Below are positions 821-32,549 of a DNA stretch of 35,082 nt, one piece after another. This DNA is from Candidatus Poribacteria bacterium (GTDB lineage: Bacteria; Poribacteria; WGA-4E; GCA-2687025). Where the stretch lies: assembly GCA_016866785.1 (NCBI GenBank), contig VGLH01000029.1, positions 1 through 35,082 of the forward strand. Reading direction: 5' to 3'. How positions within the stretch are numbered: the stretch's first letter is position 1; each line of letters starts with the position of its first letter. The translations under genes and the position numbers were made by a program. The notes under the pieces were generated by a model that was not told the origin of the DNA, made no database searches, and worked only from the letters and a program-made list of their open reading frames with translations.

Positions 821-1129
821 GTGTTCGTCGTGTCGAACCGAATCCATGTTGCCGAAGGCTATGAGAGCGAGTTCGAGGCGCGCTTTTCCAGACGGCTGGG
901 AGCCATCGAGGGAACTCCCGGCTTCGTGCGCTACCTGCTGCTGAAGCCCGTCAAGGCGACGCACTACGTCGTCAACGTCTACTGGGAGAACCGCGAGGCG
1001 TTCGAGTCGTGGGTCGGCAGCGAGTCCTTCCGCAAGGCGCACGCCGACCGTCCGCCCGAGGCGATGTTCGCCGGACCCAATCAGGTGGAGCAGCACGAGG
1101 TCATCCAGCAGTCGGGTGCGCCATCGTGA
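821..1129 (+). CDS. Antibiotic-biosynthesis-monooxygenase (ABM) fold protein, IsdG-like heme oxygenase candidate
   Basis: This 102-residue protein starts at a GTG preceded by AAGGAG (806-811), nine bases upstream. The length and pattern fit a single ABM ferredoxin-like domain: a first strand FVVSNRIHV, a GFVRYLLL strand, a YVVNVYW strand, then a helix FESWVGSESFRKAH. Asn6, Trp64 and His74 sit at the spacing of the catalytic Asn-Trp-His triad of IsdG/IsdI heme-degrading oxygenases. A heme-degrading role is therefore a reasonable inference, but many ABM proteins act on other substrates. The protein is cytoplasmic, with no signal peptide. Its stop codon overlaps the GTG start of the next gene (GTGA, 1126-1129), so the two are translationally coupled. 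No heme-uptake gene is visible nearby. Confidence 0.8.
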   Translation: MFVVSNRIHVAEGYESEFEARFSRRLGAIEGTPGFVRYLLLKPVKATHYVVNVYWENREAFESWVGSESFRKAHADRPPEAMFAGPNQVEQHEVIQQSGAPS

Positions 1130-19231: not shown

Positions 19232-22200
19232 ATGAACCCGATGTCTGACCGCCCGCACACGGCGTCGGCGCGGCTGACCAACGCTCGACTCCAGACTCGG
19301 TATCGCCATCGACAACCTCCGAATCGCTGCGCCGCGCTCGTTGCGCTGACGTTGCTTCTCGCCGTGCACGCCGGAGCCGCGTTCGCCGCGCCGGACACGG
19401 CGATCCTGAGCGGGCCCGCCGGACTCACCGACCGCGCCGACGTCGTCTTCTGGTGGGCAGGACTCTCCGACGACCCCGCCGCGCCGGTGCGAGGCTACCG
19501 GTACAGCCTCGACGGGTCTGCCCCCGTCTTCACCGAATCCTCGACAATCGCCCTCTACGCGTTGCCTCAAGGCGAGCACCGGTTCCGCGTCGCGGCGGTG
19601 AACGCCCGGCTGGAAGAGGACCCGACGCCCGCCGAAAGCCTGTTCACCGTCGGAGTGGCGTTCAGCGAGGAAGCCGAGTCGAACGACTTCGCCGTCGCCG
19701 CCAACGACGCCTCATCGGGCATCGAGGTGCGAGGCATCTCCGGCGGAGCGGTCGATATCGACTTCTTCAAGGTGGCGCTCTTAGGCGCGCCGAACCAGGT
19801 GACCGTCACCTTCCGCCGACCCGTCGGGGGGCTCGGCAAGACGACGGTTCAGCTCTATCGCGGCGATCCAGCCCTGAACGTCCTGCTGGGAACCGCGACG
19901 GCGTCGCCGGAGAATAGCCAGCGGGTCACGTTCACCGTCGGAACATCGCCTTCCGTCCACTACCTGCGCGTGCAGTCCGACGCGGCGGAGGCGGTCGCGT
20001 CGCAATACGTCGTCACGGTCACCGGCGCGGCGCTGGCTCCGGCGTACCACCGCGACATCGAGCCGAACGACTCCGAGGCGTCCGCGAACGTGCGCGAGCT
20101 GACCGCCGCCTCGTCGAAGCTCGGCATCGTCGGTTCCGCTGCCAGCGCGACTGATGTGGACTGGTACCGCATCCGCGCCAACATCACCACGACCGCCCTG
20201 CTGCGGCTGACCGTGTTCCGACCCGGTTCCGCTGGCGAGACGAAGGTCAGCGTCTACGCAGGGGCTCCGCCGACGACGGATCGGCAGATCGCCCGGCTTA
20301 CCGCTTCGGGAGCCAACGGGCAGTTCGCGACGTTCGAGACGGGCGTCACGCTGAGCGATGTCCTCGTGCGCGTCGAGCACCCCTCGACGCTGGCGGCGGA
20401 GCCGTACTGGCTGTTCTTCTCGCTGTCGGAGCCTGCAGGCGACGTCGAGGTGGAACCCAACGGAGCCGATCCGCGCGTCAACCCGCGTTCGCCAACGCGA
20501 TTGGCGCTCGACCGCCCGATGGACGGCACGAGCTGGGACGGCGGCGCGGACACCGACTGGTACGCCGTCGAAGCGCCTCGTGCCGGCGTGTTGACGATCC
20601 GGTTCACGCGCCCATCCGGCACGGGCTTGACGCGGGTGCGCGCGTTCAGCCCGAACTTCGCGCAGATCGGCGAGGCAACGGCTTCCGTCGCCGCGAGCCA
20701 GACGGCGACACTGAGCCTGTCCGTGAGCGCCGGAACCCACCATGTCGAGCTCACGCCGACCGGTGAGTCTTCAGCCGCCGGGTACCGGCTCAACGCCACG
20801 CTCGGCGCGGCGGGCGTGCTCGACGTGAGCCATTCCGCGACTCGACCGCTGCGGCGCGGCGAGGTGCTCCGCGTCACCGCGACGGCTCCGCCCAGGGGCG
20901 CGGCGAGTTTCGCCATCGGGACGGCGCGCGAAGGGATACCACTCTTCGACGACGGCGCGCACGAGGACGGTTCCGCGTCCGACGGCGTCTATTCGGGAAC
21001 CTACAGCGTCGGCGCGTCGGACGACCTGCGCGATCAGCCGGTGGTCGTCACTGTGCGCGACGAGACGGGCGGCGTCAGCACCAAGACGGCGTCGCAGACC
21101 GTGACGCTCGACGGTGTTCCCCCGGCTCCCATCACGGCTCTGACGGCGAGCGACCGGCCCGACGACGACGGCTATTGGCTGCGTCTGTCGTGGTCGGCAT
21201 CGCGGGCGGCGGACCTGGCAACCTATCGGGTCTACATCTCGCCGACGCCCATCCCAGCGACGTCAGGACTCGCGCCAGCGCTTTCGACGCACCTGACATC
21301 GCTGGACGTGCCCGTGTCGCAGAACGGCGTGGACACGTACATCGCCGTCACGGCAGTCGATCTCGCCGGGAACGAGTCAGCGTTGGGCGGTCTGTCGGTA
21401 TTCGGACCCATCCGCGCGCTGGACAACCGGCGTCCCGATCCGGTGTCGGGCGTGACCATCGCCGACACGCCCTACGACTACGGCGGATCGGTCACGGCGC
21501 GGTGGGACGCCGCGCTCGTCGAAGACTTCCAGGAGTACCGCGTCTATGTGGGCCCGGAGCCCATCGCATCGACCGAGGGACGGGTTCCCGGGGCGCGAGT
21601 CGCGAGCCAACGGGCGACCGTCGCGGACATCGGTTCCCTGCCTGTGGGCGCGCCGGTCTACGTCGCGGTGACGGTCGTCGATCTGTCGGGGAACGAGTCC
21701 GCCATCGGGCCCGGTTCGACGGCGGGACCCGCGACCCCAGCCGCGAACGCGACGCCGGACGCATCGCCGCTGCGCTTGACGGGACCCAGCGGCATCGTGC
21801 GGGGAACGTCCGCGACCTTCCTGTGGAACCGGTACGCGGCGGACGCGGGCGACCCGCCGTCGCGGTTCAGCGTCCAGTTGGATGGACGAGCTTCCGAGTT
21901 GACATCGCTGACTTCAGCGATGTTCTACGGTCTGTCGGCGGGCGAGCACACCGTCCGCGTCGGGATTCCGGGCGCGGCGACGGCGTCGCAGGCGACCTTC
22001 CGGGTCGAGCCCACGACCGTGCGGGAACGCGAACCGAACGAGGCGGAATCGACGGCGACCGAACTGACGCCGAACGTGACCTTCGCCGGTATCGCCGAAG
22101 CCGCTGGCGATCTGTACCGCCTGAACATCGAGAACCCCCGCGTCCTCGCCTTGACCGCCGAATCGTCGGGCGAAGCGACCGTCACGCTCTATCGCGGCAT

Positions 22201-25200
22201 CCGCTCGCCGGATACGGTGGCGTTCCAGAGCGTCTTGACGGCGGCGGCTCCGCGCCGCACGGCAACCGTCGCCGTGGCTCCGGGCGTCCACTGGATTCAT
22301 GTGACCGGCAGCGGCGATTACGCGCTCTTCGCGTCCCTGCTCGACCTGGGAGCCGGACGCGCCGCCGAGATGGAGCCCAACGACGTCGCCGACCGCGCGC
22401 TGACGCTCGATCTGTCCGCTCCGGCGCTGGTGCGCGGTTCGTCTCAGACGGCTCCCGACCGCGACTGGTTCGCGGTTCCCGTGCTTGCGGCGTCGCGGCT
22501 GGAGGTCGCGTCCTACCGTCCGGCGGGCTCCGGCACGACGACTTGGCGGCTCTACCGGGGCGACGCGCCGGTTGCCGAGTGGAAGCTGGACGGCGCGCGC
22601 CTGTCGAACCGAATCGCCATCGGCGCGGCTGCCGACCTCTATTTCGTGGAGATTGTCGGCGAGCAAGCGAGCGCGAGCGAGTACGAGGCACGCATCGCCT
22701 TGACGCCCGGCGCGGCGGGCATGGAGATCGAGTCGAACGACGTGATCGCGCGCGCGACGCCCCTGCCTCTGACGACGGCGTTCGCGGGCGACGCCTGGAA
22801 GTCGGGCGATGTCGATGCCTATTCCGTTCAGATCATTCGCCGGGGGACGGTCGCCGTCGGTTACGAAGCCGGCATGGGAACCGGAACCGTCGAGGTGCAT
22901 ATCCGCAACGCGGGGGGCGTGTCGCTGGCGTCGTCGCCGGCGAACCCATCGAATGGCGGCAGGACGTCCGTCCAGGCGGATGCCGTGCCAGGAGCCTACT
23001 ACCTTTCGGTGGAACCCCAGGGCTCCGCGACGGACTCCTACCGGACATGGGCGTTCTTCGTCGAGGAGTTGAGCCATTCGGCGACGCGTCCGCTCCGGTC
23101 GGGCGATCCTCTCGATTTGCGCGTCGTCTGGGTTCCGGGCGGTTCGGCGGCGGTTCGTCTGATCGACGTGGACGGCGCGGCGGTCGGTTTGCCGCTGACG
23201 CTGGGCGATGCGTCCAAGGCGGGCGTCTACACGGGTCGAGTGACGATCCCGGCTAGCGCCAAGGGCCCGCTGACCGTGCGCGCGGAACTGGCGATAAGCG
23301 CGATGCAAGCCACGGTCGCCTTTGCGCAGCCCGTCGCCGTGGACGCCTCGGAGCCCCAGGTCACGTCGGTCTCCATCGACGACGTTGCCGCCTTCGGGTT
23401 GGGAGCGGCCATCCACGTGCGCGCCGTGGCGGAGAAGGGCTTGTCGGCGTCCTTCGCGATCCTTCGACCCGATGGCACGCCGGTTCGCGCGGGTCTTCCG
23501 TTGGTGGACGACGGGACGAAGGGAGACGCCCAGGCGAACGACGGCGTCTATACGAGCGCGTACACGACGGTCGCGGGCGATGACGTACGCGGGGGCTCCG
23601 TCGCGGCGACGTTCCGGCGGGGCACGGGCCCGTCCGTCGTGGTTCCCGCGCCGATGCGCTTGACCATCGACACAGTTCCCCCACCGGGAGTTACCGGCGT
23701 CGCCGCGCAGGACGTTCCGGGCGACGAAGGCGGCTTCCTGCGCGTGACGTGGGACGCCAGCGCCGTCGAGGACTTCGCGCGGTACGCCGTCTATGCGGCG
23801 CAGACGCCCGTTGTGACGCTCTCCCGGCTGACGCCCATCGCGACGAGCGCCCAGCGGGATGCCACCTCGCTGATCGTCGAAGCGGAGAGCGGGGTTCCGT
23901 TTTACTCGGCGGTCGTCGCGGTCGATCTCGCCGGGAACGCCTCGCCGTTGATCGGCGGGCCGAAGGGCTCCGTCTCCGGCGCGGCGACCGCTCTGGACAA
24001 TCTCCCACCGGAGCCCGTTTCGGGCGTTCAGGCGGCGGACCGGCGCGGAGATCGCGGCGGCGTCTTGACCGTTCGATGGTCTCCCAGTCTCGCGCCGGAC
24101 TTCGGCGAGTACCGCATCCACCTGTCGGACCGACCTTTCGCGGCGGGAGTCGGCGGAACCATCGCCGGGCGCGTCCCGGTCGTCGGCGTCACGGTCGCCG
24201 ATATCGGAACGGCGGCGGATGGCGTCGATTGGTACGTCGCCGTGACGGCGGCTGACGCGGCTGGGAACGAGTCGCCAATCGGCGGTTCCAGCGTGTCGGG
24301 TCCCGTTCGGAGCGCCGCCGATGCGCCGCCCGGAAGCGACCTGGGAGCCGCGCTGTTGGCAGGACCCGTCGGGACGGCGCGTCAGGGCTCGGTCGTCGCG
24401 CGATGGAGCGCGTTCGCGCCGGATGGCTCAGCGCCGGGCTGGCGCGTGCGCCTGGACGACGGTCCCCCGCAACTTGCCGCCGTCAACGAACTTCTGTTTC
24501 CGAACCTGTCGGCGGGTTCCCATTCGCTCACGGTGGAACCCTCGGATGGGAGCCTTCCCGCAACCGTGCGAACCTTCGCCGTCGAGCCGCTGGCGCTTGA
24601 GGAGAGCGAGCCGAACGACCTCGGCGCTGCCGCGACCGCGTTGCCGGTTGGCATTCGCATGAACGGGACGACGGACGCGGCTGGCGATGTCGATTGGTAT
24701 CGCGTCGTCGTGTCGGAACCGGCGGCGCTGTCACTCCATCTGTCGCGCGGCAGCCCCAACGAGTCCGTCGTGACGCTCTTCCCGGCGTTCGCGCTGGGAG
24801 ACTTGGAGCGGATCGCGCGCGTGTCGGCGCGAGGCGGCGAATCGCGCGCGACGACGCTCGGAGTGGACGCGGGAGAGTACCTCGTCCGTGTGGACGGTGC
24901 TCCGGGGCAGTACCGTCTCGCCGTTGCCCTGAGCGCGCGCTTGCCCGGCTATGTGTGGGACGTCGAGCCGAACGGCGACCCGCTGCGCGCCACCCCGGTC
25001 GGGTCGGGGACCGCCGAGATCGCCGGATCGGCGAACTCCGCCGATGACATAGACTGGTATCGCTTCGACGTGGATCGAGCTCCGGGCACCGTCTTCGAGC
25101 TTCGGCTTCTGCGAGTCGGTTCCGCCGAGCTCTACCAGGGCGCTCCAGATGCTTCGAGCGCTCCCATCGCCGCCCTGACGAGTTCCGGTGGTTCGGTCGC

Positions 25201-28200
25201 AACGCTCCGAACTGGAGTCGCCGCGTCCAGTCTGTACCTGCGAGTGGCGGGCGTCGGCTCGGTTCCGTACGCGATCCAGCCTGCCATCGTCGCTCTGCCG
25301 GAGGGGGTTCAGTGGGAGGAAGAGCAGAACGGCGTCGAGGCGTTGGCGACGCGCGTGCCTCTCACGACACGCGAAGTGCGCGGGACGCTCCGTTCCGGCG
25401 AATCCGACTGGTTCCGCGTCACCGTGCCCGACGGGGCACTGCGGCTGCTGACCTGGCGTCCGACGGCTCCGGTCGGGTCGGTGGGCAAGGCGCGCGCGCT
25501 GCGTTCCTTCCCGTCCGCGTTGCCGATCGACGTGGGCGAGGTCGCACTGGGAGACGTCGCCTCGGGGGGTCTGACGATCCCGACGACCGGCGGGACGTAT
25601 CTCTTCGAGATGTCCGGCAACACCGGCGGCGATTTCGAGTACGCGGTCTCCGTGTCTCTGGAACCGGCTGCGGACGGCGCAGACTGGGAGCTGGAACCCA
25701 ACGGCGCAGCGCCTCGCGCCGGAGCTCTGCGACTCGGACGCCCGATGCTCGGGTCGATTTCCAGCGCGTCCGATGAGGACTGGTTCGTCGTGAACCTGGA
25801 TCCGGCACTGGAGGGAGCCCTGCTGCTGTCTCTGTCAGCGCCCACCGCGACGGGCTCGGTCAAGATGCAGGTGTTGAGTCCGGGTCTGGTGAGCCTCGCC
25901 GAGACCCTCGCCAGCCCGTCGGATGCGATGTCTGCAATCGTGCAGCTACCGTCTCCCGGTTCCGCCTACTACATGCGGATCAGCGGCTCCGGTCGCGGCG
26001 GGTATCGAGTCGGAGCCCTGCGCGTGCGTCGGGGTTCCCACGATGGGGTTCGTCCGTTGGGCGTCGGCGGAGTCCTGACGGCGCGCATCGAGGGCGATCC
26101 CGGATGGAGCGTGTCGGCGGAGCTCGGCTCGGGCTCCGTCGTGTTCCCGCTCGCTGCGACCTCCGGCGGTATCTACGTCGGGACGCACACGGTTCGGAGC
26201 GGAGAGAACGCCGCCGCCAGCGAGCTTCGCGCGGTCATTCGGACGGACAGCGGGATCGCCGCGTCGCTGACCTTGCCGCCCGTTGTGACCATCGACACGG
26301 CGGCGCCGGAGATCAAGGACGTGCAGCACAACGCGGCGAAGGCGCTCCGAGCCGACGATGTGCTGGTCGTGCGCGCGCGGACGGAGCCGCTCGCCGTCGT
26401 GACGATGGAGTTGGCTGCCGAAGGGTTCCGCGCGGTCGCGTCGCTATACGACGACGGCAAACACGAAGACGGCGGAGCCAACGACGGCGAGTACGCCGGA
26501 ACCTATCGCGTCGCGCTGGGAGACCAGGCGGCGGGGGCGACGGTCACCGTGGCTGCGACGGACGACCTGGGCAACCGCGCGACGCGTTCGGCGCTTCGGA
26601 AAGTGGATATCGACACGACGCCTCCGCGTATCGCGTCCATCGAACACGACGCCCGGAGCGTTCTGGCGTCCGGCGACCGAATGACGGTGCGCATCCGGGG
26701 CGAGGTCGGAGCCGTCGGGGAGTTCGCCATCGCCGGCGTTCGCGAGCATATCGCCCTTTCGGACGAGGGCACGCAGGGCGACGAAGTCGCGAATGACGGC
26801 GTCTACACGGGCTTCGTCGTCATCCGCGAGGGAGACAACGCGCTGAACGCGCTCGTGTCGGCGACGTTGACAGATCGCGCCGGGAACGTATCGCGCATCG
26901 TCGCGCCGCAGCCAGTCAGCATCGACACGACGAAACCGAGCATCAAGTCCGTGACGCACAATGCGACCAGATCCCTGCACGCCGGCGACAAGCTGATCGT
27001 CCGCCTCGTCGGGGAACCGGAGGGAACCGCGACGCTGGACATCGGGACGGCGTTGACGGGGCTTCCCCTGCTGGACGACGGCGCGGGCGACGACGTTGCA
27101 GCGGGAGACGGCATCTACACGGCGAGCTACATCGTCCGGGAGACGGATTCGGTCGTCGAAGCGCTCGTGACGGCGACACTGACGGATCGCAACGGAAACT
27201 CCGAGACGCGGAGCGCGTCGCGTCGCGTTTCGCTGGACGCGATCCCGCCGGAGCCGATCGTGAACTTGGTCGCCATCGATGTGCCTCAAGACGAAGGCGG
27301 GCGGATTCGGCTGACCTGGCAGCCGACGACCGACGTGCGCGACTTCCTGCGCTACCAGGTTTACCGGCAGTCGGCTCCGATCCGAAGCACGAAGGGGATG
27401 GTTCCCGTCGTGGCGGATCTCCGTGCGCCCGAAAAGACGACGCTCGACGTGGACGTGCCGGTGAACAATGCGGACCTCTGGTTCGCCGTCACGGCGGTCG
27501 ATGCGGCTCTCAACGAGAGCGCGCTGTCGCCGACGGGCGGCTCGACGGCGGGCCCGGTGCGGGCGACGGATGACATCGCGCCCGCGTCGGTCGTCGGCGT
27601 GAGCGCGTCGGACGCCCCGGATGACAACGGCTTGGCGCTGCTCGTCCGCTGGACGCCGTCCAACGCCGAACGCGATTTCGCCCACTACGCGGTCTACATT
27701 GGGCGCGAGCCGCTCGCCGGTGCGTCGCTGCAAGATGCGAAGCCGGCGGCGGTCTTCCCGGATCGTGCGATTCCGCAGGGCATCGTTCCGGTTCCCGAAG
27801 ACGGGATGGACCTCTACGTGGCGGTGGTCGCCGCCGACGTGAACGGGAACCGGTCGGCGATGGTCGCCGGGTCGTTGGCGGGTCCGGTGCAGTCGCACGA
27901 CGACATCCGCCCCGATCCCGTTGCGGGCGTCTCCGCGTCGGATTCGCCCAGCGACCGAGGCGGCGAGCTCGTCGTCTCGTGGAAACCCGACGAGGACGCC
28001 ACGATCCGCACGTACGAGGTCTACGTGACGACAGAACCGCGCGTTCTGCTGCGGTCGTCGGATGTCCCGGCGTTGGTCGTGGACCGCGCATCCCTGGCGG
28101 ACCCGAAGAAGCCGGTCGCGCTGGTTCCGGTTCCGCGTGACGACGTGCCGTACTATGTCGCGCTCGCCGCCGTGGACGGCGGCAGGAATCGCTCTCTGCT

Positions 28201-28966
28201 CGGCGAAACATCCGTGGCGGGCCCGGTGCGTTCGATCCAGAACATCCTGTCCGATCAGCGGGAATGGACCGTTCGAGGCGGACTGGACGCGCGCACGAGC
28301 GTCACGGTTCCGCAGTCCATCGCCCGACCGGGGATGCGGATCGACATTCTGACGGTGACGGATTCGGCTTGGCTGCGCCGGATCGAGGAGGCGAATCTCT
28401 CGCCGGACGAGGCGAACATCGATCCTGAGCCGGACACGCTCCTGCAGAGCACGACGCGGTGGTTCTCGTCGGATACCGAGGCGTTCCCACAGCCGATCAC
28501 GGTCACGATGGGGTTCCCGGCGCTCGACCCTCCAGACCTGGCGCAGGAGCTGCGGGTCTTCCGGCTGAACGCCTCGGCGGTTCCCGCGAGATGGGAGTTG
28601 GTGTCCGGCGTGCAGCGAGTCGATGTGAACCAGGGCGTCGTGACGGCGCAGATGCGGACGCTGGGCGTGCTGCGGGTGGCGCGGCTGGTGCTGCCTCGGC
28701 GGCTGGACCGCGTCGTGCTCTACCCGAACCCATTTTCACCGGAGACGCACGGCGTCTTGACGTTCCGCAACCTGACCGCCGACGCGGTCGTGGACATCTT
28801 CACCCTGGATGCCCGACGTGTGCGGACGCTCACGAGCGCCAACCCGGGCACGGCAACCTGGGACGGGCGCGACGGGAGCGGACATCTCGTCGCGACCGGG
28901 CTCTACATCTATCTCGTTCGGGGAGCCAACGCCCGACGTACGGGGCAGATCTTCGTGGCGCGCTGA
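19232..28966 (+). CDS. Giant modular secreted protein (3244 aa): Ig-like, PPC, anchor-X-like and FN3 repeats, C-terminal sorting-like domain
   Basis: Export is indicated by a long basic start and a hydrophobic core (LVALTLLLAVHAGAAFA, cleavage near residue 53). Three blocks follow. Block A: Ig-like about 55-140, three PPC-type repeats (from 147, 275 and 406), one anchor-X-like repeat (533), two FN3 (628, 733). Block B: Ig-like 847, PPC 932, 1047 and 1166, anchor-X 1280 and 1377, FN3 1482 and 1591. Block C: Ig-like 1707, PPC 1791, 1911, 2029 and 2153, anchor-X 2269, 2364, 2470 and 2573, FN3 2671, 2783 and 2893. PPC repeats show EPND/EPNG then DxDWY; anchor-X repeats show HNATRxL...DDGxxxD...DGxYxG. 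Residues 3162-3244 (VVLYPNPFSPE...TWDGRDGSG...ATGLYIYLV) match FlgD-Ig/type A sorting domains. No enzyme domain is visible, so a surface adhesin or scaffold is likely. GGAGAAGGG precedes the start. Confidence 0.9.
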   Translation: MNPMSDRPHTASARLTNARLQTRYRHRQPPNRCAALVALTLLLAVHAGAAFAAPDTAILSGPAGLTDRADVVFWWAGLSDDPAAPVRGYRYSLDGSAPVFTESSTIALYALPQGEHRFRVAAVNARLEEDPTPAESLFTVGVAFSEEAESNDFAVAANDASSGIEVRGISGGAVDIDFFKVALLGAPNQVTVTFRRPVGGLGKTTVQLYRGDPALNVLLGTATASPENSQRVTFTVGTSPSVHYLRVQSDAAEAVASQYVVTVTGAALAPAYHRDIEPNDSEASANVRELTAASSKLGIVGSAASATDVDWYRIRANITTTALLRLTVFRPGSAGETKVSVYAGAPPTTDRQIARLTASGANGQFATFETGVTLSDVLVRVEHPSTLAAEPYWLFFSLSEPAGDVEVEPNGADPRVNPRSPTRLALDRPMDGTSWDGGADTDWYAVEAPRAGVLTIRFTRPSGTGLTRVRAFSPNFAQIGEATASVAASQTATLSLSVSAGTHHVELTPTGESSAAGYRLNATLGAAGVLDVSHSATRPLRRGEVLRVTATAPPRGAASFAIGTAREGIPLFDDGAHEDGSASDGVYSGTYSVGASDDLRDQPVVVTVRDETGGVSTKTASQTVTLDGVPPAPITALTASDRPDDDGYWLRLSWSASRAADLATYRVYISPTPIPATSGLAPALSTHLTSLDVPVSQNGVDTYIAVTAVDLAGNESALGGLSVFGPIRALDNRRPDPVSGVTIADTPYDYGGSVTARWDAALVEDFQEYRVYVGPEPIASTEGRVPGARVASQRATVADIGSLPVGAPVYVAVTVVDLSGNESAIGPGSTAGPATPAANATPDASPLRLTGPSGIVRGTSATFLWNRYAADAGDPPSRFSVQLDGRASELTSLTSAMFYGLSAGEHTVRVGIPGAATASQATFRVEPTTVREREPNEAESTATELTPNVTFAGIAEAAGDLYRLNIENPRVLALTAESSGEATVTLYRGIRSPDTVAFQSVLTAAAPRRTATVAVAPGVHWIHVTGSGDYALFASLLDLGAGRAAEMEPNDVADRALTLDLSAPALVRGSSQTAPDRDWFAVPVLAASRLEVASYRPAGSGTTTWRLYRGDAPVAEWKLDGARLSNRIAIGAAADLYFVEIVGEQASASEYEARIALTPGAAGMEIESNDVIARATPLPLTTAFAGDAWKSGDVDAYSVQIIRRGTVAVGYEAGMGTGTVEVHIRNAGGVSLASSPANPSNGGRTSVQADAVPGAYYLSVEPQGSATDSYRTWAFFVEELSHSATRPLRSGDPLDLRVVWVPGGSAAVRLIDVDGAAVGLPLTLGDASKAGVYTGRVTIPASAKGPLTVRAELAISAMQATVAFAQPVAVDASEPQVTSVSIDDVAAFGLGAAIHVRAVAEKGLSASFAILRPDGTPVRAGLPLVDDGTKGDAQANDGVYTSAYTTVAGDDVRGGSVAATFRRGTGPSVVVPAPMRLTIDTVPPPGVTGVAAQDVPGDEGGFLRVTWDASAVEDFARYAVYAAQTPVVTLSRLTPIATSAQRDATSLIVEAESGVPFYSAVVAVDLAGNASPLIGGPKGSVSGAATALDNLPPEPVSGVQAADRRGDRGGVLTVRWSPSLAPDFGEYRIHLSDRPFAAGVGGTIAGRVPVVGVTVADIGTAADGVDWYVAVTAADAAGNESPIGGSSVSGPVRSAADAPPGSDLGAALLAGPVGTARQGSVVARWSAFAPDGSAPGWRVRLDDGPPQLAAVNELLFPNLSAGSHSLTVEPSDGSLPATVRTFAVEPLALEESEPNDLGAAATALPVGIRMNGTTDAAGDVDWYRVVVSEPAALSLHLSRGSPNESVVTLFPAFALGDLERIARVSARGGESRATTLGVDAGEYLVRVDGAPGQYRLAVALSARLPGYVWDVEPNGDPLRATPVGSGTAEIAGSANSADDIDWYRFDVDRAPGTVFELRLLRVGSAELYQGAPDASSAPIAALTSSGGSVATLRTGVAASSLYLRVAGVGSVPYAIQPAIVALPEGVQWEEEQNGVEALATRVPLTTREVRGTLRSGESDWFRVTVPDGALRLLTWRPTAPVGSVGKARALRSFPSALPIDVGEVALGDVASGGLTIPTTGGTYLFEMSGNTGGDFEYAVSVSLEPAADGADWELEPNGAAPRAGALRLGRPMLGSISSASDEDWFVVNLDPALEGALLLSLSAPTATGSVKMQVLSPGLVSLAETLASPSDAMSAIVQLPSPGSAYYMRISGSGRGGYRVGALRVRRGSHDGVRPLGVGGVLTARIEGDPGWSVSAELGSGSVVFPLAATSGGIYVGTHTVRSGENAAASELRAVIRTDSGIAASLTLPPVVTIDTAAPEIKDVQHNAAKALRADDVLVVRARTEPLAVVTMELAAEGFRAVASLYDDGKHEDGGANDGEYAGTYRVALGDQAAGATVTVAATDDLGNRATRSALRKVDIDTTPPRIASIEHDARSVLASGDRMTVRIRGEVGAVGEFAIAGVREHIALSDEGTQGDEVANDGVYTGFVVIREGDNALNALVSATLTDRAGNVSRIVAPQPVSIDTTKPSIKSVTHNATRSLHAGDKLIVRLVGEPEGTATLDIGTALTGLPLLDDGAGDDVAAGDGIYTASYIVRETDSVVEALVTATLTDRNGNSETRSASRRVSLDAIPPEPIVNLVAIDVPQDEGGRIRLTWQPTTDVRDFLRYQVYRQSAPIRSTKGMVPVVADLRAPEKTTLDVDVPVNNADLWFAVTAVDAALNESALSPTGGSTAGPVRATDDIAPASVVGVSASDAPDDNGLALLVRWTPSNAERDFAHYAVYIGREPLAGASLQDAKPAAVFPDRAIPQGIVPVPEDGMDLYVAVVAADVNGNRSAMVAGSLAGPVQSHDDIRPDPVAGVSASDSPSDRGGELVVSWKPDEDATIRTYEVYVTTEPRVLLRSSDVPALVVDRASLADPKKPVALVPVPRDDVPYYVALAAVDGGRNRSLLGETSVAGPVRSIQNILSDQREWTVRGGLDARTSVTVPQSIARPGMRIDILTVTDSAWLRRIEEANLSPDEANIDPEPDTLLQSTTRWFSSDTEAFPQPITVTMGFPALDPPDLAQELRVFRLNASAVPARWELVSGVQRVDVNQGVVTAQMRTLGVLRVARLVLPRRLDRVVLYPNPFSPETHGVLTFRNLTADAVVDIFTLDARRVRTLTSANPGTATWDGRDGSGHLVATGLYIYLVRGANARRTGQIFVAR

Positions 28967-30211: not shown

Positions 30212-31003
30212 ATGACGCGTCCTACCATTCGTCTTGCTGTCGGAATCACGCTTCTGTTCGCGATGCAGGCGTCGTCCTCGGCGAGGGAGGTCGCCGGATT
30301 GGTACTCGCGTTGCCGTTCGGCGAGGGTAAAGGGGCGACGGTCGCCGACGGGTCGGGCAACGGCAACGACGGGAAGATCAAAGGCGGCGTCAAGTGGACG
30401 ACGGGCAAGTACGGCGGCGGGTTGCAGTTCGACGGGAACGACGGCGTCGTCGAGGTTCCCGACAGCAAGTCGCTCCAGTTCACCGACGGACTGACGGTCG
30501 CCGTGTGGATCAAGCCGACGCTCAAGGGCGATGAGTGGCAGCTTCTCGGGTCGAAGGGAGCCGACGCCAAAGAGTTCTTCGAGGTTCTCCTGAGTCCGAA
30601 CGGGTTCCTGTGGATGGGATGGATGTTCCAGAACGCCCAGCGAATCGTGCCGGCGCAGAGCCCGAAGGAGGTGAAGCCTGACGTGTGGCAGCACGTCGCC
30701 GTCGCGTGGGACCCGAAGCAGTTCTGGACGGTCTATCTCGACGGGGAGCCGCTCATCGAATATCCGAAGCAGGACGACAAGCTCGTCCCCAACACCGATC
30801 CCGTGCTCATCGGCACGGAGCTCAACCTGAAGCGGTACTACAACGGCGTCATGGACGACTGGGCGCTGTTCAATCGCGGGCTGACCCAGAAGGAGATCAA
30901 GTCCGTGATGGGCGGACTCGACGCGCTGCTGCCGGTCGATCCGCTCGGGCGCTCCGCGACGACGTGGGGGCGCCTGAAGGCGGGCAGGGGTCCGAGAGCC
31001 TAG
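30212..31003 (+). CDS. Secreted LamG/concanavalin-like protein, paralogue of the 16681 protein
   Basis: The 263-residue protein starts after a good ribosome-binding site (GGAAGGAG, about 30199-30206) with the signal peptide MTRPTIRLAVGITLLFAMQASSSA. One LamG jelly roll follows: LPFGEGKGATVADGSGNGND, GKYGGGLQFDG, VAVWIKPTLKG, VWQHVAVAWDPKQFWTVYLDG and NGVMDDWALFNRGLTQKEIKS. The last residues, LLPVDPLGRSATTWGRLKAG, repeat the tail seen at the end of the 16681 protein. A TATATA box at 30155-30160 lies in the 220-bp gap upstream, but its -35 partner is poor. The stop codon TAG shares the tetramer CTAG (31000-31003) with the stop of the convergent DUF2283 gene. Confidence 0.87.
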   Translation: MTRPTIRLAVGITLLFAMQASSSAREVAGLVLALPFGEGKGATVADGSGNGNDGKIKGGVKWTTGKYGGGLQFDGNDGVVEVPDSKSLQFTDGLTVAVWIKPTLKGDEWQLLGSKGADAKEFFEVLLSPNGFLWMGWMFQNAQRIVPAQSPKEVKPDVWQHVAVAWDPKQFWTVYLDGEPLIEYPKQDDKLVPNTDPVLIGTELNLKRYYNGVMDDWALFNRGLTQKEIKSVMGGLDALLPVDPLGRSATTWGRLKAGRGPRA

Positions 31004-31239
31004 ACCGCGAGCGTCGATGACCCACTTTGGGCGGAACTCTCCGCCGCGCGCCGAAGCCGCTCATGGACGCTGCCGGGCAGCAGCGCCTTCGCGCCGAGGA
31101 ACTCCAGACCTGCGATCTGCTCCTTGGCGTTGAAGTCCACGACCAACCCCGGCAACACCTCTTCCGATTCGATGATGGGCTCGGTGTCGTCGAGCACAAT
31201 GGCGAAGGCGTCCGTTTCGGGATCGTAGCGGACTCTCAT
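31000..31239 (-). CDS. DUF2283 family small protein
   Basis: I choose ATG 31239, eight bases after AGAGGAA, giving 79 residues. The sequence MRVRYDPETDAFAIVLDD...ESEEVLPGLVVDFNAKEQIAGLEFLGA is a close fit to the DUF2283 pattern (VRYDPExDALYIxL...xESxEVxPGVxxDxDxxGxxVGIEIL). The function is unestablished. Members are often second in two-gene units behind a DUF4258-like gene and are suspected antitoxins. Here the ATG overlaps the TGA of a short upstream frame (ATGA), the usual coupling of such pairs, but the upstream partner is reduced to 21 codons. The C-terminal extension after residue 55 is longer than typical. Confidence 0.8.
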   Translation of the reverse strand: MRVRYDPETDAFAIVLDDTEPIIESEEVLPGLVVDFNAKEQIAGLEFLGAKALLPGSVHERLRRAAESSAQSGSSTLAV

Positions 31240-31301
31240 TTGCGGTTCCTCTGCGACCGGTCGAAGTACGCGATCACGACGCACCGGCGTTCCTGCTTCT
31301 C
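31236..31301 (-). pseudogene. C-terminal remnant of a lost partner gene of DUF2283 (DUF4258-like)
   Basis: In the frame overlapping the DUF2283 start by ATGA, 21 codons read EKQERRCVVIAYFDRSQRNRK before TGA. A hydrophobic strand followed by a basic tail is how DUF4258-type partner proteins commonly end (VVTVYW...R). Reading upstream, a TAG stop appears at 31302-31304, exactly at the edge of the REP-like palindrome starting at 31305. The rest of the gene is missing, so the palindrome marks the breakpoint. The family assignment is tentative because only the tail is left. Confidence 0.4.
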
Positions 31302-31304
31302 CTA

Positions 31305-31390
31305 CTCGTCATTCCCGCGCGCCCCGCCTTCGCGGGGCCAGGAAGCGGGAATCCAGAACCCTGGGCTCCCGCTTTCGCGGGAGCGACGAG
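31305..31390. repeat. REP-like palindromic repeat (CGTCATTCCCGCG family)
   Basis: The 86-bp unit begins CTCGTCATTCCCGC and ends GCGGGAGCGACGAG; the ends pair with two mismatches. Inside are two perfect 7-bp hairpins, GCCCCGC/GCGGGGC (31321-31338, loop CTTC) and CTCCCGC/GCGGGAG (31366-31383, loop TTTC), with a CCAG/CTGG stem between. The wording CGTCATTCCCGCG...GCGGGAATCCAG...CCCGCTTTCGCGGGA is that of a dispersed intergenic repeat seen in many bacteria. It separates the AbiGi gene from the DUF2283 gene and could act as a terminator for either. Confidence 0.8.
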
Positions 31391-31419
31391 GCCCCACCAG
31401 GGTAACAGCAGCGTACTGC

Positions 31420-32259
31420 CTAGAGGTTGCGGCACTCCTCAAGCGTCAAGAACGGGGGACACTTCTCACGCTCCTTGCCCATCCATTCGGTGATGAGTTC
31501 GTGGTGGTACAACATGAACCGCGTTCTTTCGTCAGGGAGGACAATGATAGCGACATCGTGGGGGAGTATTGGGATGCGATACGCCACTTTCACGTTGCCG
31601 TCGGCAACGAATTCCTCTTCCTTAGGCGCGGTGAAAGGCTTGGGCTGCACCCAATCCGGAGGCTCCACGATACGCCACTCGTTCTCTTCCATCAGCGAGT
31701 AGTCGTTCGGAGAGCTGTCGGACATACGCCTGACGAAGTAGGCGAGCCTCCAAACCTCATCCTTCACATGCGTCGGCGTCCGTAGACAGCTCACATCTCC
31801 TGGAACGTCGGGGACGCGCTCCTCTTCGCAGTGCTTGAGGGCTTCCCAGTGCTTGAGGGCTTCAACGATCTCGACAAAGGCATTCGCCACGAATTGCCCG
31901 TTGTCTTCACCGACGTAATGCACGGGCGCTCCGCCTCTGGCAATCGCCCAGTCACGGCGGACCCCGACTCCGAGACATCCATACTGCTTGGACAGGTGTT
32001 CCGCCTGTGACAGACGCGTCTCGGTGAAGCAGACGCGCGCAAGAATCTGCCGTATCCCGACATCTTTGCCAAACAGGTATTCCGGTTGTCCGATCGTTAC
32101 GCAGATTCCTTTTGCCACAATATCCGCTAGGAGTCCAACATACTTCTCGCGTTGCACCGCTGATATCCGCTCCCAGCGAATGGACCGTTTCGTACATTCA
32201 GCTTCCGTGTGAAGATGCTTGCCGACCCAGTGCACGAGGAAGTCAGATCGACCAGACAT
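31420..32259 (-). CDS. AbiGi-type abortive-infection antitoxin-like protein
   Basis: I choose ATG 32259, eight bases after GGGAGG, giving 279 residues starting MSGRSDFLVHWVGK; an upstream in-frame ATG at 32307 lacks a site. The first 120 residues match the AbiGi pattern: SDFLVHW at the start, then ARVCFTETRLSQAEHLSKQYG, GVGVRRDWAIARGGAPVHYVG. AbiGi is the antitoxin half of the lactococcal AbiG phage-resistance system. The C-terminal part holds the repeated ALKHWE/ALKHCE and conserved-looking EENEWRIVEPPDW and DVAIIVLPDERTR segments, seen in longer members. No AbiGii-like nucleotidyltransferase toxin is adjacent, so the gene is an orphan or works alone. It neighbours a REP-like repeat and a broken gene, which suggests an accessory region. 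Confidence 0.72.
   Translation of the reverse strand: MSGRSDFLVHWVGKHLHTEAECTKRSIRWERISAVQREKYVGLLADIVAKGICVTIGQPEYLFGKDVGIRQILARVCFTETRLSQAEHLSKQYGCLGVGVRRDWAIARGGAPVHYVGEDNGQFVANAFVEIVEALKHWEALKHCEEERVPDVPGDVSCLRTPTHVKDEVWRLAYFVRRMSDSSPNDYSLMEENEWRIVEPPDWVQPKPFTAPKEEEFVADGNVKVAYRIPILPHDVAIIVLPDERTRFMLYHHELITEWMGKEREKCPPFLTLEECRNL
31829..31863. repeat. In-frame tandem duplication inside the AbiGi-like gene
   Basis: The 17-base sequence CAGTGCTTGAGGGCTTC occurs at 31829-31845 and again at 31847-31863, an 18-base period. In the protein this gives two near-identical hexapeptides, ALKHWE and ALKHCE. The frame is preserved, so the gene stays open. Confidence 0.9.
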
Positions 32260-32549
32260 CTCGATTGCCTCCCACGCCCGTTGGCGCCAAAACGACGTAC
32301 GGCTCACGCGGTTCGTGACGAATCGCAGTAGGCTTCGGCAGCCCTTGCCATTGGATTGCCGACCTGTCCTGTTGCGACGACCTCACAGACGATCGCTGCG
32401 TCGGCTCGGCCCTATGGTAACGCCATGGACAACATCGACGCACGATGTACTACGGATCATCGACAAGATGCGGTAAGGTATCCTGTTGATCGCGGTTGCG
32501 AATAGGCGGATCGTTGCCAGTGGAGTCCGACGAGTCAGGAGTCAACGAT

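What the first reader, a model, noticed from the sequence alone, without database searches (positions are those of the whole stretch)
31420..32259. Orphan AbiGi-like antitoxin with an internal in-frame duplication
The N-terminal 120 residues fit the AbiGi antitoxin pattern, yet no AbiGii toxin is next to it and the protein has an extended C-terminal part. An 18-base tandem duplication (ALKHWE/ALKHCE) shows recent length change. It may be a stand-alone defence gene of a less studied type.
Basis: partly seen in the sequence, partly recalled or inferred. Interest (0 to 1): 0.5.

Follow-up and report, generated by a model that had tools for sequence, protein, structure and literature searches.

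The report
Stand-alone AbiGi-family protein, predicted ADP-ribosyltransferase fold
A bacterium carries a lone gene labelled as a phage-defence antitoxin, but its predicted shape and conserved residues suggest an ADP-ribose-transferring enzyme, so the antitoxin label is probably misleading here.

Summary
The gene is real: 279 codons on the minus strand, ATG at 32259, GGGAGG 8 nt upstream. It passes the Pfam AbiGi cut-off (29.2 vs 22.4 bits). No AbiGii is found in the 95%-complete genome. The 18-bp tandem duplication is real (0 of 300 shuffles match it). The C-terminus is not an extension: two homologs and a phage protein family align to it.

AlphaFold models of this protein and of a viral-contig relative (pLDDT 92) both match DarT best, then Tpt1, at moderate scores; sequence profiles do not show the link significantly. 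A 2018 paper already placed AbiGi in the ART fold.

What I did not find in print: among 57 relatives, the DarT-like first-strand histidine is present in all 41 proteins without AbiGii, this one included, and absent from all 10 encoded beside AbiGii. The AbiGii-linked proteins form one clade (100/100), so this is one evolutionary event.

Best reading: a probably horizontally acquired, stand-alone ART-fold protein of likely defence role, not an orphan antitoxin. Enzyme activity and phage defence are untested. It is a new member of a known family.

The parts
31420..32259 (-). AbiGi-family gene, 279 aa, stand-alone
   Evidence: Pfam PF10899 29.2 bits vs cut-off 22.4; PADLOC AbiGi 6.8e-7; two same-family homologs at 33% and 26% identity; AF2 pLDDT 76.4, pTM 0.74
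32268..32273 (-). Shine-Dalgarno-like GGGAGG, 8 nt before ATG 32259
   Evidence: upstream sequence printed
32224..32232 (-). H10-W11-V12 on predicted strand 1; counterpart of the HFT of most solo relatives
   Evidence: column of H10 is H in 46 of 57; strand 7-12. DarT1 H17-F18-T19 contact NAD+ (PMC11543638 section 10)
32026..32028 (-). F78, invariant aromatic residue in a predicted strand
   Evidence: 57 of 57; strand 73-79
31672..31686 (-). E192-x-E194-W195-R196, invariant motif; candidate catalytic glutamate
   Evidence: each of the four residues in 57 of 57; strand 194-197
31824..31863 (-). 18-bp tandem duplication (ALKHWE/ALKHCE) inside a variable helical insert
   Evidence: TRF; 0 of 300 shuffles

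Best explanation
A probably horizontally acquired, stand-alone member of the AbiGi (PF10899) family in a Poribacteria-like genome, with an ADP-ribosyltransferase fold closest to DarT and Tpt1. Shown here: family membership, absence of AbiGii, the predicted fold, and the conservation pattern. Inferred: it binds NAD+ through the first-strand histidine and aromatic residue and uses a glutamate of the ExEWR motif to move ADP-ribose onto a nucleic acid or protein, or to consume NAD+, when a phage or other element triggers it, with the variable helical insert possibly modulating activity. It is not an antitoxin that has lost its toxin; the AbiGi of true AbiGi/AbiGii operons is a derived lineage in which that histidine is replaced.
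For: Window model: the 10 best VIA-align rows are all DarT or Tpt1 (7omw Z 6.8, 3.8 A, 142 aligned; 7yk3 6.5; 8baq 5.7; 7yw4 5.5; the last three 4.2-4.3), the best unrelated row is 4.0. Relative L072 (pLDDT 92.0, pTM 0.88): the first 29 rows are ART-superfamily proteins (7omw Z 7.1, 4.1 A, 143 aligned; best other row 3.2; that the three Rhs-toxin rows among them are ARTs is recalled), and the top four Foldseek rows are all DarT (E 0.041-0.17, prob 0.44-0.66). The DarT-like expectation was noted before any fold search. HFT-type triplet as in DarT1 H17-F18-T19; H in 41 of 41 proteins without AbiGii and 0 of 10 with it. AbiGii is the most frequent recurring neighbour (6 loci). Solo relatives lie near Avs4 on two E. 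coli plasmids. Foreign composition. Prior statement that AbiGi and DUF4433 share the ART fold (PMC6192313, passage).
Against: Z is below 8, which the tool warns may be only a common arrangement; for the window model the lower Tpt1 rows tie with unrelated ones. Foldseek found nothing for the window model (best E 0.23) or among viral models; its DarT rows for L072 are above E 0.001, with TM 0.31-0.39 and rmsd 9.6-12.6. hhalign of AbiGi against Poribacteria DarT is not significant (E 0.026, probability 1.9). No Pfam DarT match. The window has V12 where most solos have T. A residue-by-residue superposition could not be made, so the counterpart of the DarT catalytic glutamate is assumed. I found no activity data.
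Confidence: 0.6

Rival explanations
1. Orphan antitoxin: the protein was once paired with AbiGii, lost it, and is a relic or an anti-addiction module against incoming AbiGii.
For: Database name; no AbiGii in the genome.
Against: The window groups with two other Poribacteria homologs without AbiGii (97/92), apart from the AbiGii-linked clade; 41 of 51 proteins with at least 300 nt of downstream DNA, the window included, lack AbiGii; no AbiGii was found in the genomes of L013 and L014; the frame is intact and the invariant residues are kept.
Confidence: 0.1
2. ART-fold pseudo-enzyme: the fold is kept as a binding or sensor module without catalysis.
For: The window has W11 and V12 where most solos have F and T; the AbiGii-linked clade shows that the first-strand histidine can be lost while the rest stays.
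Against: H10, F78, E192, E194, W195 and R196 are all retained in this diverged copy.
Confidence: 0.2
3. Part of a two-gene module with an unrecognised partner, such as the DUF2283 gene 31284..31000 on the same strand.
For: DUF2283 (PF10049, 51.6 bits) lies downstream on the same strand; in L013 an HTH_3 gene lies 163 nt upstream of the homolog; in E. coli plasmid L010 a 403-aa gene starts 27 nt downstream; a small co-directional ORF lies 33-108 nt upstream in three related viral contigs (L019, L023, L030).
Against: The candidate partners differ from locus to locus; of the 14 neighbour groups printed, none but AbiGii spans more than 4 loci, and the others look like shared phage or plasmid backbone; 135 nt with a dispersed repeat separate the window gene from DUF2283.
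Confidence: 0.1

Closest known systems
AbiGi family, PF10899 / PADLOC AbiGi / phrog_13416
   Same: Above the Pfam cut-off; PADLOC 6.8e-7; phrog_13416 8.1e-11 over residues 64-244; shares F78, P112, Y115 and ExEWR with all 57.
   Different: No AbiGii; HWV instead of HFT; 12-30% identity to the 19 other members of alignment A3.
AbiG system of Lactococcus (AbiGi + AbiGii)
   Same: AbiGi-family motifs.
   Different: AbiGii absent; first-strand histidine present, whereas 10 of 10 AbiGii-linked AbiGi, a Lactococcus one included, have N, R or K.
DarT (PF14487), DNA ADP-ribosyltransferase of DarTG
   Same: Best fold match for both models; H-aromatic pair on strand 1 as in DarT1.
   Different: No Pfam DarT match; profile comparison not significant; no DarG-like protein among the four neighbours scanned.
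DUF2971 (PF11185)
   Same: Local E-x-E-W-R motif (hhalign E 0.0011, probability 20, over 20 columns); 3 of 20 AbiGi members match it weakly, best E 0.16.
   Different: Not a significant family match; only the motif aligned.

Membership tests
AbiGi (PF10899) | Score above Pfam gathering cut-off | tested here: met
   29.2 vs 22.4 bits
AbiGi (PF10899) | Residues invariant in the sampled family (F78, P112, Y115, E192, E194, W195, R196) | tested here: met
   all present in the window and in 57 of 57
AbiG defence system (AbiGi + AbiGii) | AbiGii gene directly downstream | tested here: not met
   no PF16873 at E <= 10 in the genome; the next gene downstream is DUF2283
Antitoxin of a toxin-antitoxin pair | Neutralises a cognate toxin | not testable with these tools
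   no partner to test; lactococcal abiGi and abiGii singly did not inhibit E. coli growth (PMC3985639 passage)
ADP-ribosyltransferase superfamily | ART fold | tested here: met
   two AF2 models match DarT/Tpt1 best; Z 6.8 and 7.1, below 8, so met by rank, agreement and separation, not by score alone
ADP-ribosyltransferase superfamily | H (or R) on strand 1 and a catalytic E | tested here: inconclusive
   H10 and invariant E192/E194 present, but spatial equivalence to the DarT residues not measured
ADP-ribosyltransferase superfamily | NAD+-dependent transfer or NAD+ hydrolysis | not testable with these tools
   needs biochemistry
DarT (PF14487) | Match to the DarT profile | tested here: not met
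   no PF14487 hit at E <= 1; hhalign E 0.026
DarTG system | Adjacent DarG macrodomain or NADAR antitoxin | tested here: not met
   Pfam scan of the four main neighbouring ORFs between 30212 and 35003 shows LamG, DUF2283, rhamnogalacturonan-lyase-like and cyclase proteins

The most novel reading that the evidence does not exclude
Solo AbiGi proteins, including this one, are a widespread class of stand-alone, DarT-like ADP-ribosylating phage-defence effectors; the textbook AbiGi/AbiGii system arose once, when one lineage lost the NAD-binding histidine and became the non-catalytic partner of AbiGii.
Probability: 0.3. Interest if true: 0.65.

Novelty: new member of a known kind. Interest (0 to 1): 0.42.

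Why it matters
In the plasmid collection alone, 84 records matched an E. coli AbiGi protein, 59 of them Escherichia, Klebsiella or Salmonella, and most listed rows are annotated 'abortive infection system antitoxin'; the five Escherichia or Klebsiella records that I opened show no AbiGii beside the gene. If such solo proteins are ART-fold effectors, pipelines miscall a defence protein as an orphan antitoxin, and one conserved residue separates the two classes and can be tested cheaply. It would also make the mechanism of AbiG directly testable.

Tried and rejected
Led nowhere: single-protein scan of genome contigs (none); the viral structure library and Foldseek alone for the window model (top rows LAGLIDADG homing endonucleases at E > 0.2, TM about 0.1); PDB sequence search with A3 (nothing below E 0.74); the phages collection with L072 (no match); promoter and terminator scan (no promoter; one terminator-like site, chance level); one further phylum, 291 genomes (1 hit, L126, which has an H-F pair and no AbiGii-like ORF beside it by eye; not among the 57); AbiGii scan from an Enterococcus query (none).

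Attempt to break the histidine pattern: I searched from AbiGii instead of AbiGi. One search returned 5 viral contigs, all already in the set; one search returned 13 plasmid records, of which three were already in the set and I opened one more, L132. The AbiGi in L132 and in L127-L131 lacks the histidine. The other nine AbiGii plasmid records were not opened; their scores equal those of opened Lactococcus and Enterococcus records.

Dropped before the 57-row count: 22 of 71 AbiGi rows whose 60-residue core was identical to an earlier row; the window and seven plasmid proteins were then added. Near-copies remain (e.g. L010/L024; L071/L075/L092/L096), so 57 overstates independence. Six rows (L017, L023, L024, L027, L069, L092) end within 300 nt of the locus end and are in neither the 41 nor the 10; five have H, L027 has N and groups with the AbiGii-linked clade.

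Rejected: 'extended C-terminus'; 'DUF2971 member' (weak). In some searches my first DarT set, and the DUF2971 set, were partly read on the wrong strand; one search replaced them. By eye a 21-residue tail before the DUF2283 gene looked like DUF4258, but Pfam found nothing, so I do not claim it.

Full report
OBSERVATION. The ORF lies at 32259..31420 on the minus strand. Pfam AbiGi scores 29.2 bits against a cut-off of 22.4; PADLOC AbiGi E 6.8e-7; NCBIfam nothing; phrog_13416 E 8.1e-11 over residues 64-244. The Pfam match covers residues 75-202 of 279, not the first 120. The 18-bp tandem (31824-31863) is real. It falls in a helical insert of low model confidence (pLDDT 50-66 by block, residues 121-170), where the two nearest relatives also differ in length.

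WHERE IT IS. The window is contig C29 of a 4.35-Mb, 95.42%-complete genome. The nearest named homologs are in Candidatus Poribacteria MAGs (L013, L014), whose proteins read the same as those found in two genomes of the window's family code; so the host is inferred to be Poribacteria. Gene GC is 0.569 and GC3 0.679, while four larger neighbours have GC3 0.84-0.88 and the small DUF2283 gene 0.76; the dip spans about 31.4-32.5 kb. This suggests horizontal origin but does not prove it. A dispersed element whose first bases CGTCATTCCCGC occur 32 times in the genome (0 for the reversed control) lies just downstream at 31307.

NO PARTNER. No AbiGii profile match at E <= 10 in the genome, and none at E <= 0.01 in the genomes behind L013 and L014. 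PF10899 occurs above cut-off in 3 of 97 related genomes, this one included.

FAMILY. Scans of viral contigs, one genome-contig scan and plasmids, with annotated regions, gave 57 proteins after removing 22 repeats of 71 rows and adding the window and seven plasmid proteins. F78, P112, Y115, E192, E194, W195 and R196 are present in 57 of 57. The column of H10 is H in 46, N in 9, R in 1, K in 1. Of 51 proteins with at least 300 nt of downstream DNA, 41 (window included) have no AbiGii and all 41 have H; 10 have AbiGii directly downstream and none has H (8 N, 1 R, 1 K). Of six at a locus edge, five have H; L027 has N and groups with the AbiGii-linked clade. The column of V12 is T in 46, M in 9, V in 2 (the window is one of these).

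TREE. With the H-to-T columns left out, the AbiGii-linked proteins plus L027 form one clade (100/100). Loss of H needs one change and the AbiGii link one change. So the association is perfect in this sample but is one evolutionary event, not ten. The tree is midpoint-rooted for drawing; that this clade is derived rests on that root and on the moderate support of the nodes around it (88/92, 92/92, 88/78). The window joins L013 and L014 (97/92), and Sinorhizobium L012 on a very long branch. N, R or K could still contact NAD+; R does so in R-S-E transferases (general knowledge), so 'lost binding' is inference. Searching from AbiGii found no counter-example among the records opened.

NEIGHBOURS. 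In one search, which printed the 14 largest groups, AbiGii is the most frequent recurring neighbour (6 loci, directly downstream). The others span 3-4 loci and look like shared phage or plasmid backbone, among them a small co-directional ORF 33-108 nt upstream in L019, L023 and L030. Single cases: E. coli L010 has a 403-aa gene 27 nt downstream with a sub-threshold HSDR_N match; L013 has an HTH_3 gene 163 nt upstream; two E. coli plasmids have Avs4 nearby.

FOLD. Before any fold search I noted that HFT...E.EWR resembles DarT. The window model (20-row alignment; pLDDT 76.4, pTM 0.74) gave nothing in Foldseek, but in the VIA-align second look the first ten rows are DarT and Tpt1 (best 7omw, Z 6.8, 3.8 A, 142 aligned); the best unrelated row is 4.0, which ties with the lower Tpt1 rows (4.2-4.3) but not with DarT. 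A better model of relative L072 (39 rows; pLDDT 92.0, pTM 0.88) gave DarT as the four best Foldseek rows (E 0.041-0.17, so not significant alone; TM 0.31-0.39) and ART-superfamily proteins in the first 29 VIA rows (7omw Z 7.1, 4.1 A, 143 aligned; best other row 3.2; that the three Rhs-toxin rows are ARTs is recalled). Z stays under 8, so I rely on the agreement of two models, the one-superfamily ranking and the gap below it. Profile-profile comparison with Poribacteria DarT is not significant (E 0.026). DarT1 contacts NAD+ through H17, F18 and T19, and E152 is its ART glutamate (PMC11543638, section 10 read). Which AbiGi glutamate corresponds to E152 was not measured.

PRIOR WORK. PMC6192313 (2018; passages seen) states that an ART-fold family includes DUF4433 and AbiGi and predicts an anti-phage role for the protein it describes. 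The fold is therefore not new. PMC3985639 (passages) reports that of the lactococcal two-component Abi proteins expressed singly in E. coli only AbiEii inhibited growth, and that many abiE homologues are annotated abiG. PMC4012209 (passage) writes 'AbiGII-like nucleotidyltransferase (DUF1814)'; that DUF1814 is the AbiEii family is recalled. I did not find the link between the histidine and AbiGii pairing in print; searches: in open-licence PMC only, mostly seen as listings. One original AbiG paper that I asked for is not held.

MECHANISM. Most likely (0.6): a stand-alone ART-fold protein that acts on NAD+ and a cellular or phage target as a defence effector. Shown: family, solo state, fold by prediction, retained residues. 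Inferred: NAD+ use, target, trigger, defence role. A non-catalytic ART-fold module (0.2), an orphan antitoxin (0.1) and an unrecognised two-gene module (0.1) are the rivals.

VERDICT. A diverged new member of a known family. It is ordinary as a genome feature, but useful because it exposes a probably misleading 'antitoxin' label and a testable two-class split.

Noticed in passing
L002 (G000:C55) 975-1019, minus strand: A 15-residue stretch 73% identical to residues 4-18 of the window protein (E 0.16), read by eye to be followed soon by a stop: possible decayed paralog start; weak.
   Followed up: partly
31000-31284 (-): DUF2283 gene (PF10049, 51.6 bits), preceded by a 21-residue tail of an interrupted frame that Pfam does not recognise.
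   Followed up: partly
31307-31395: Dispersed element, palindromic by eye; its first 12 bases occur 32 times in the genome, reversed control 0.
   Followed up: partly
19232-28966 (+): Open frame of 3244 aa that by eye holds repeated modules and a C-terminus like a sorting signal; not scanned.
   Followed up: no
L016 3827-4711 and 4741-5583 (+): Two AbiGi-family genes in tandem on one viral contig, both with the histidine.
   Followed up: no
L010 4699-5910 (+): 403-aa gene 27 nt downstream of E. coli plasmid AbiGi, sub-threshold HSDR_N match; possible alternative partner.
   Followed up: partly
L105 and L133: AbiGi-family gene near Avs4 on two E. coli plasmids with IncN typing; in L133 an IS2 overlaps the gene's end.
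   Followed up: no
related genomes G000-G093: DarT (PF14487) occurs in 42 of 94 genomes but in none of the six of the window's own family.
   Followed up: no
L126 1354-2043 (-): An AbiGi-family gene (27.7 bits) overlapping tail to tail a gene that looks by eye like a DNA methyltransferase C-terminus.
   Followed up: no
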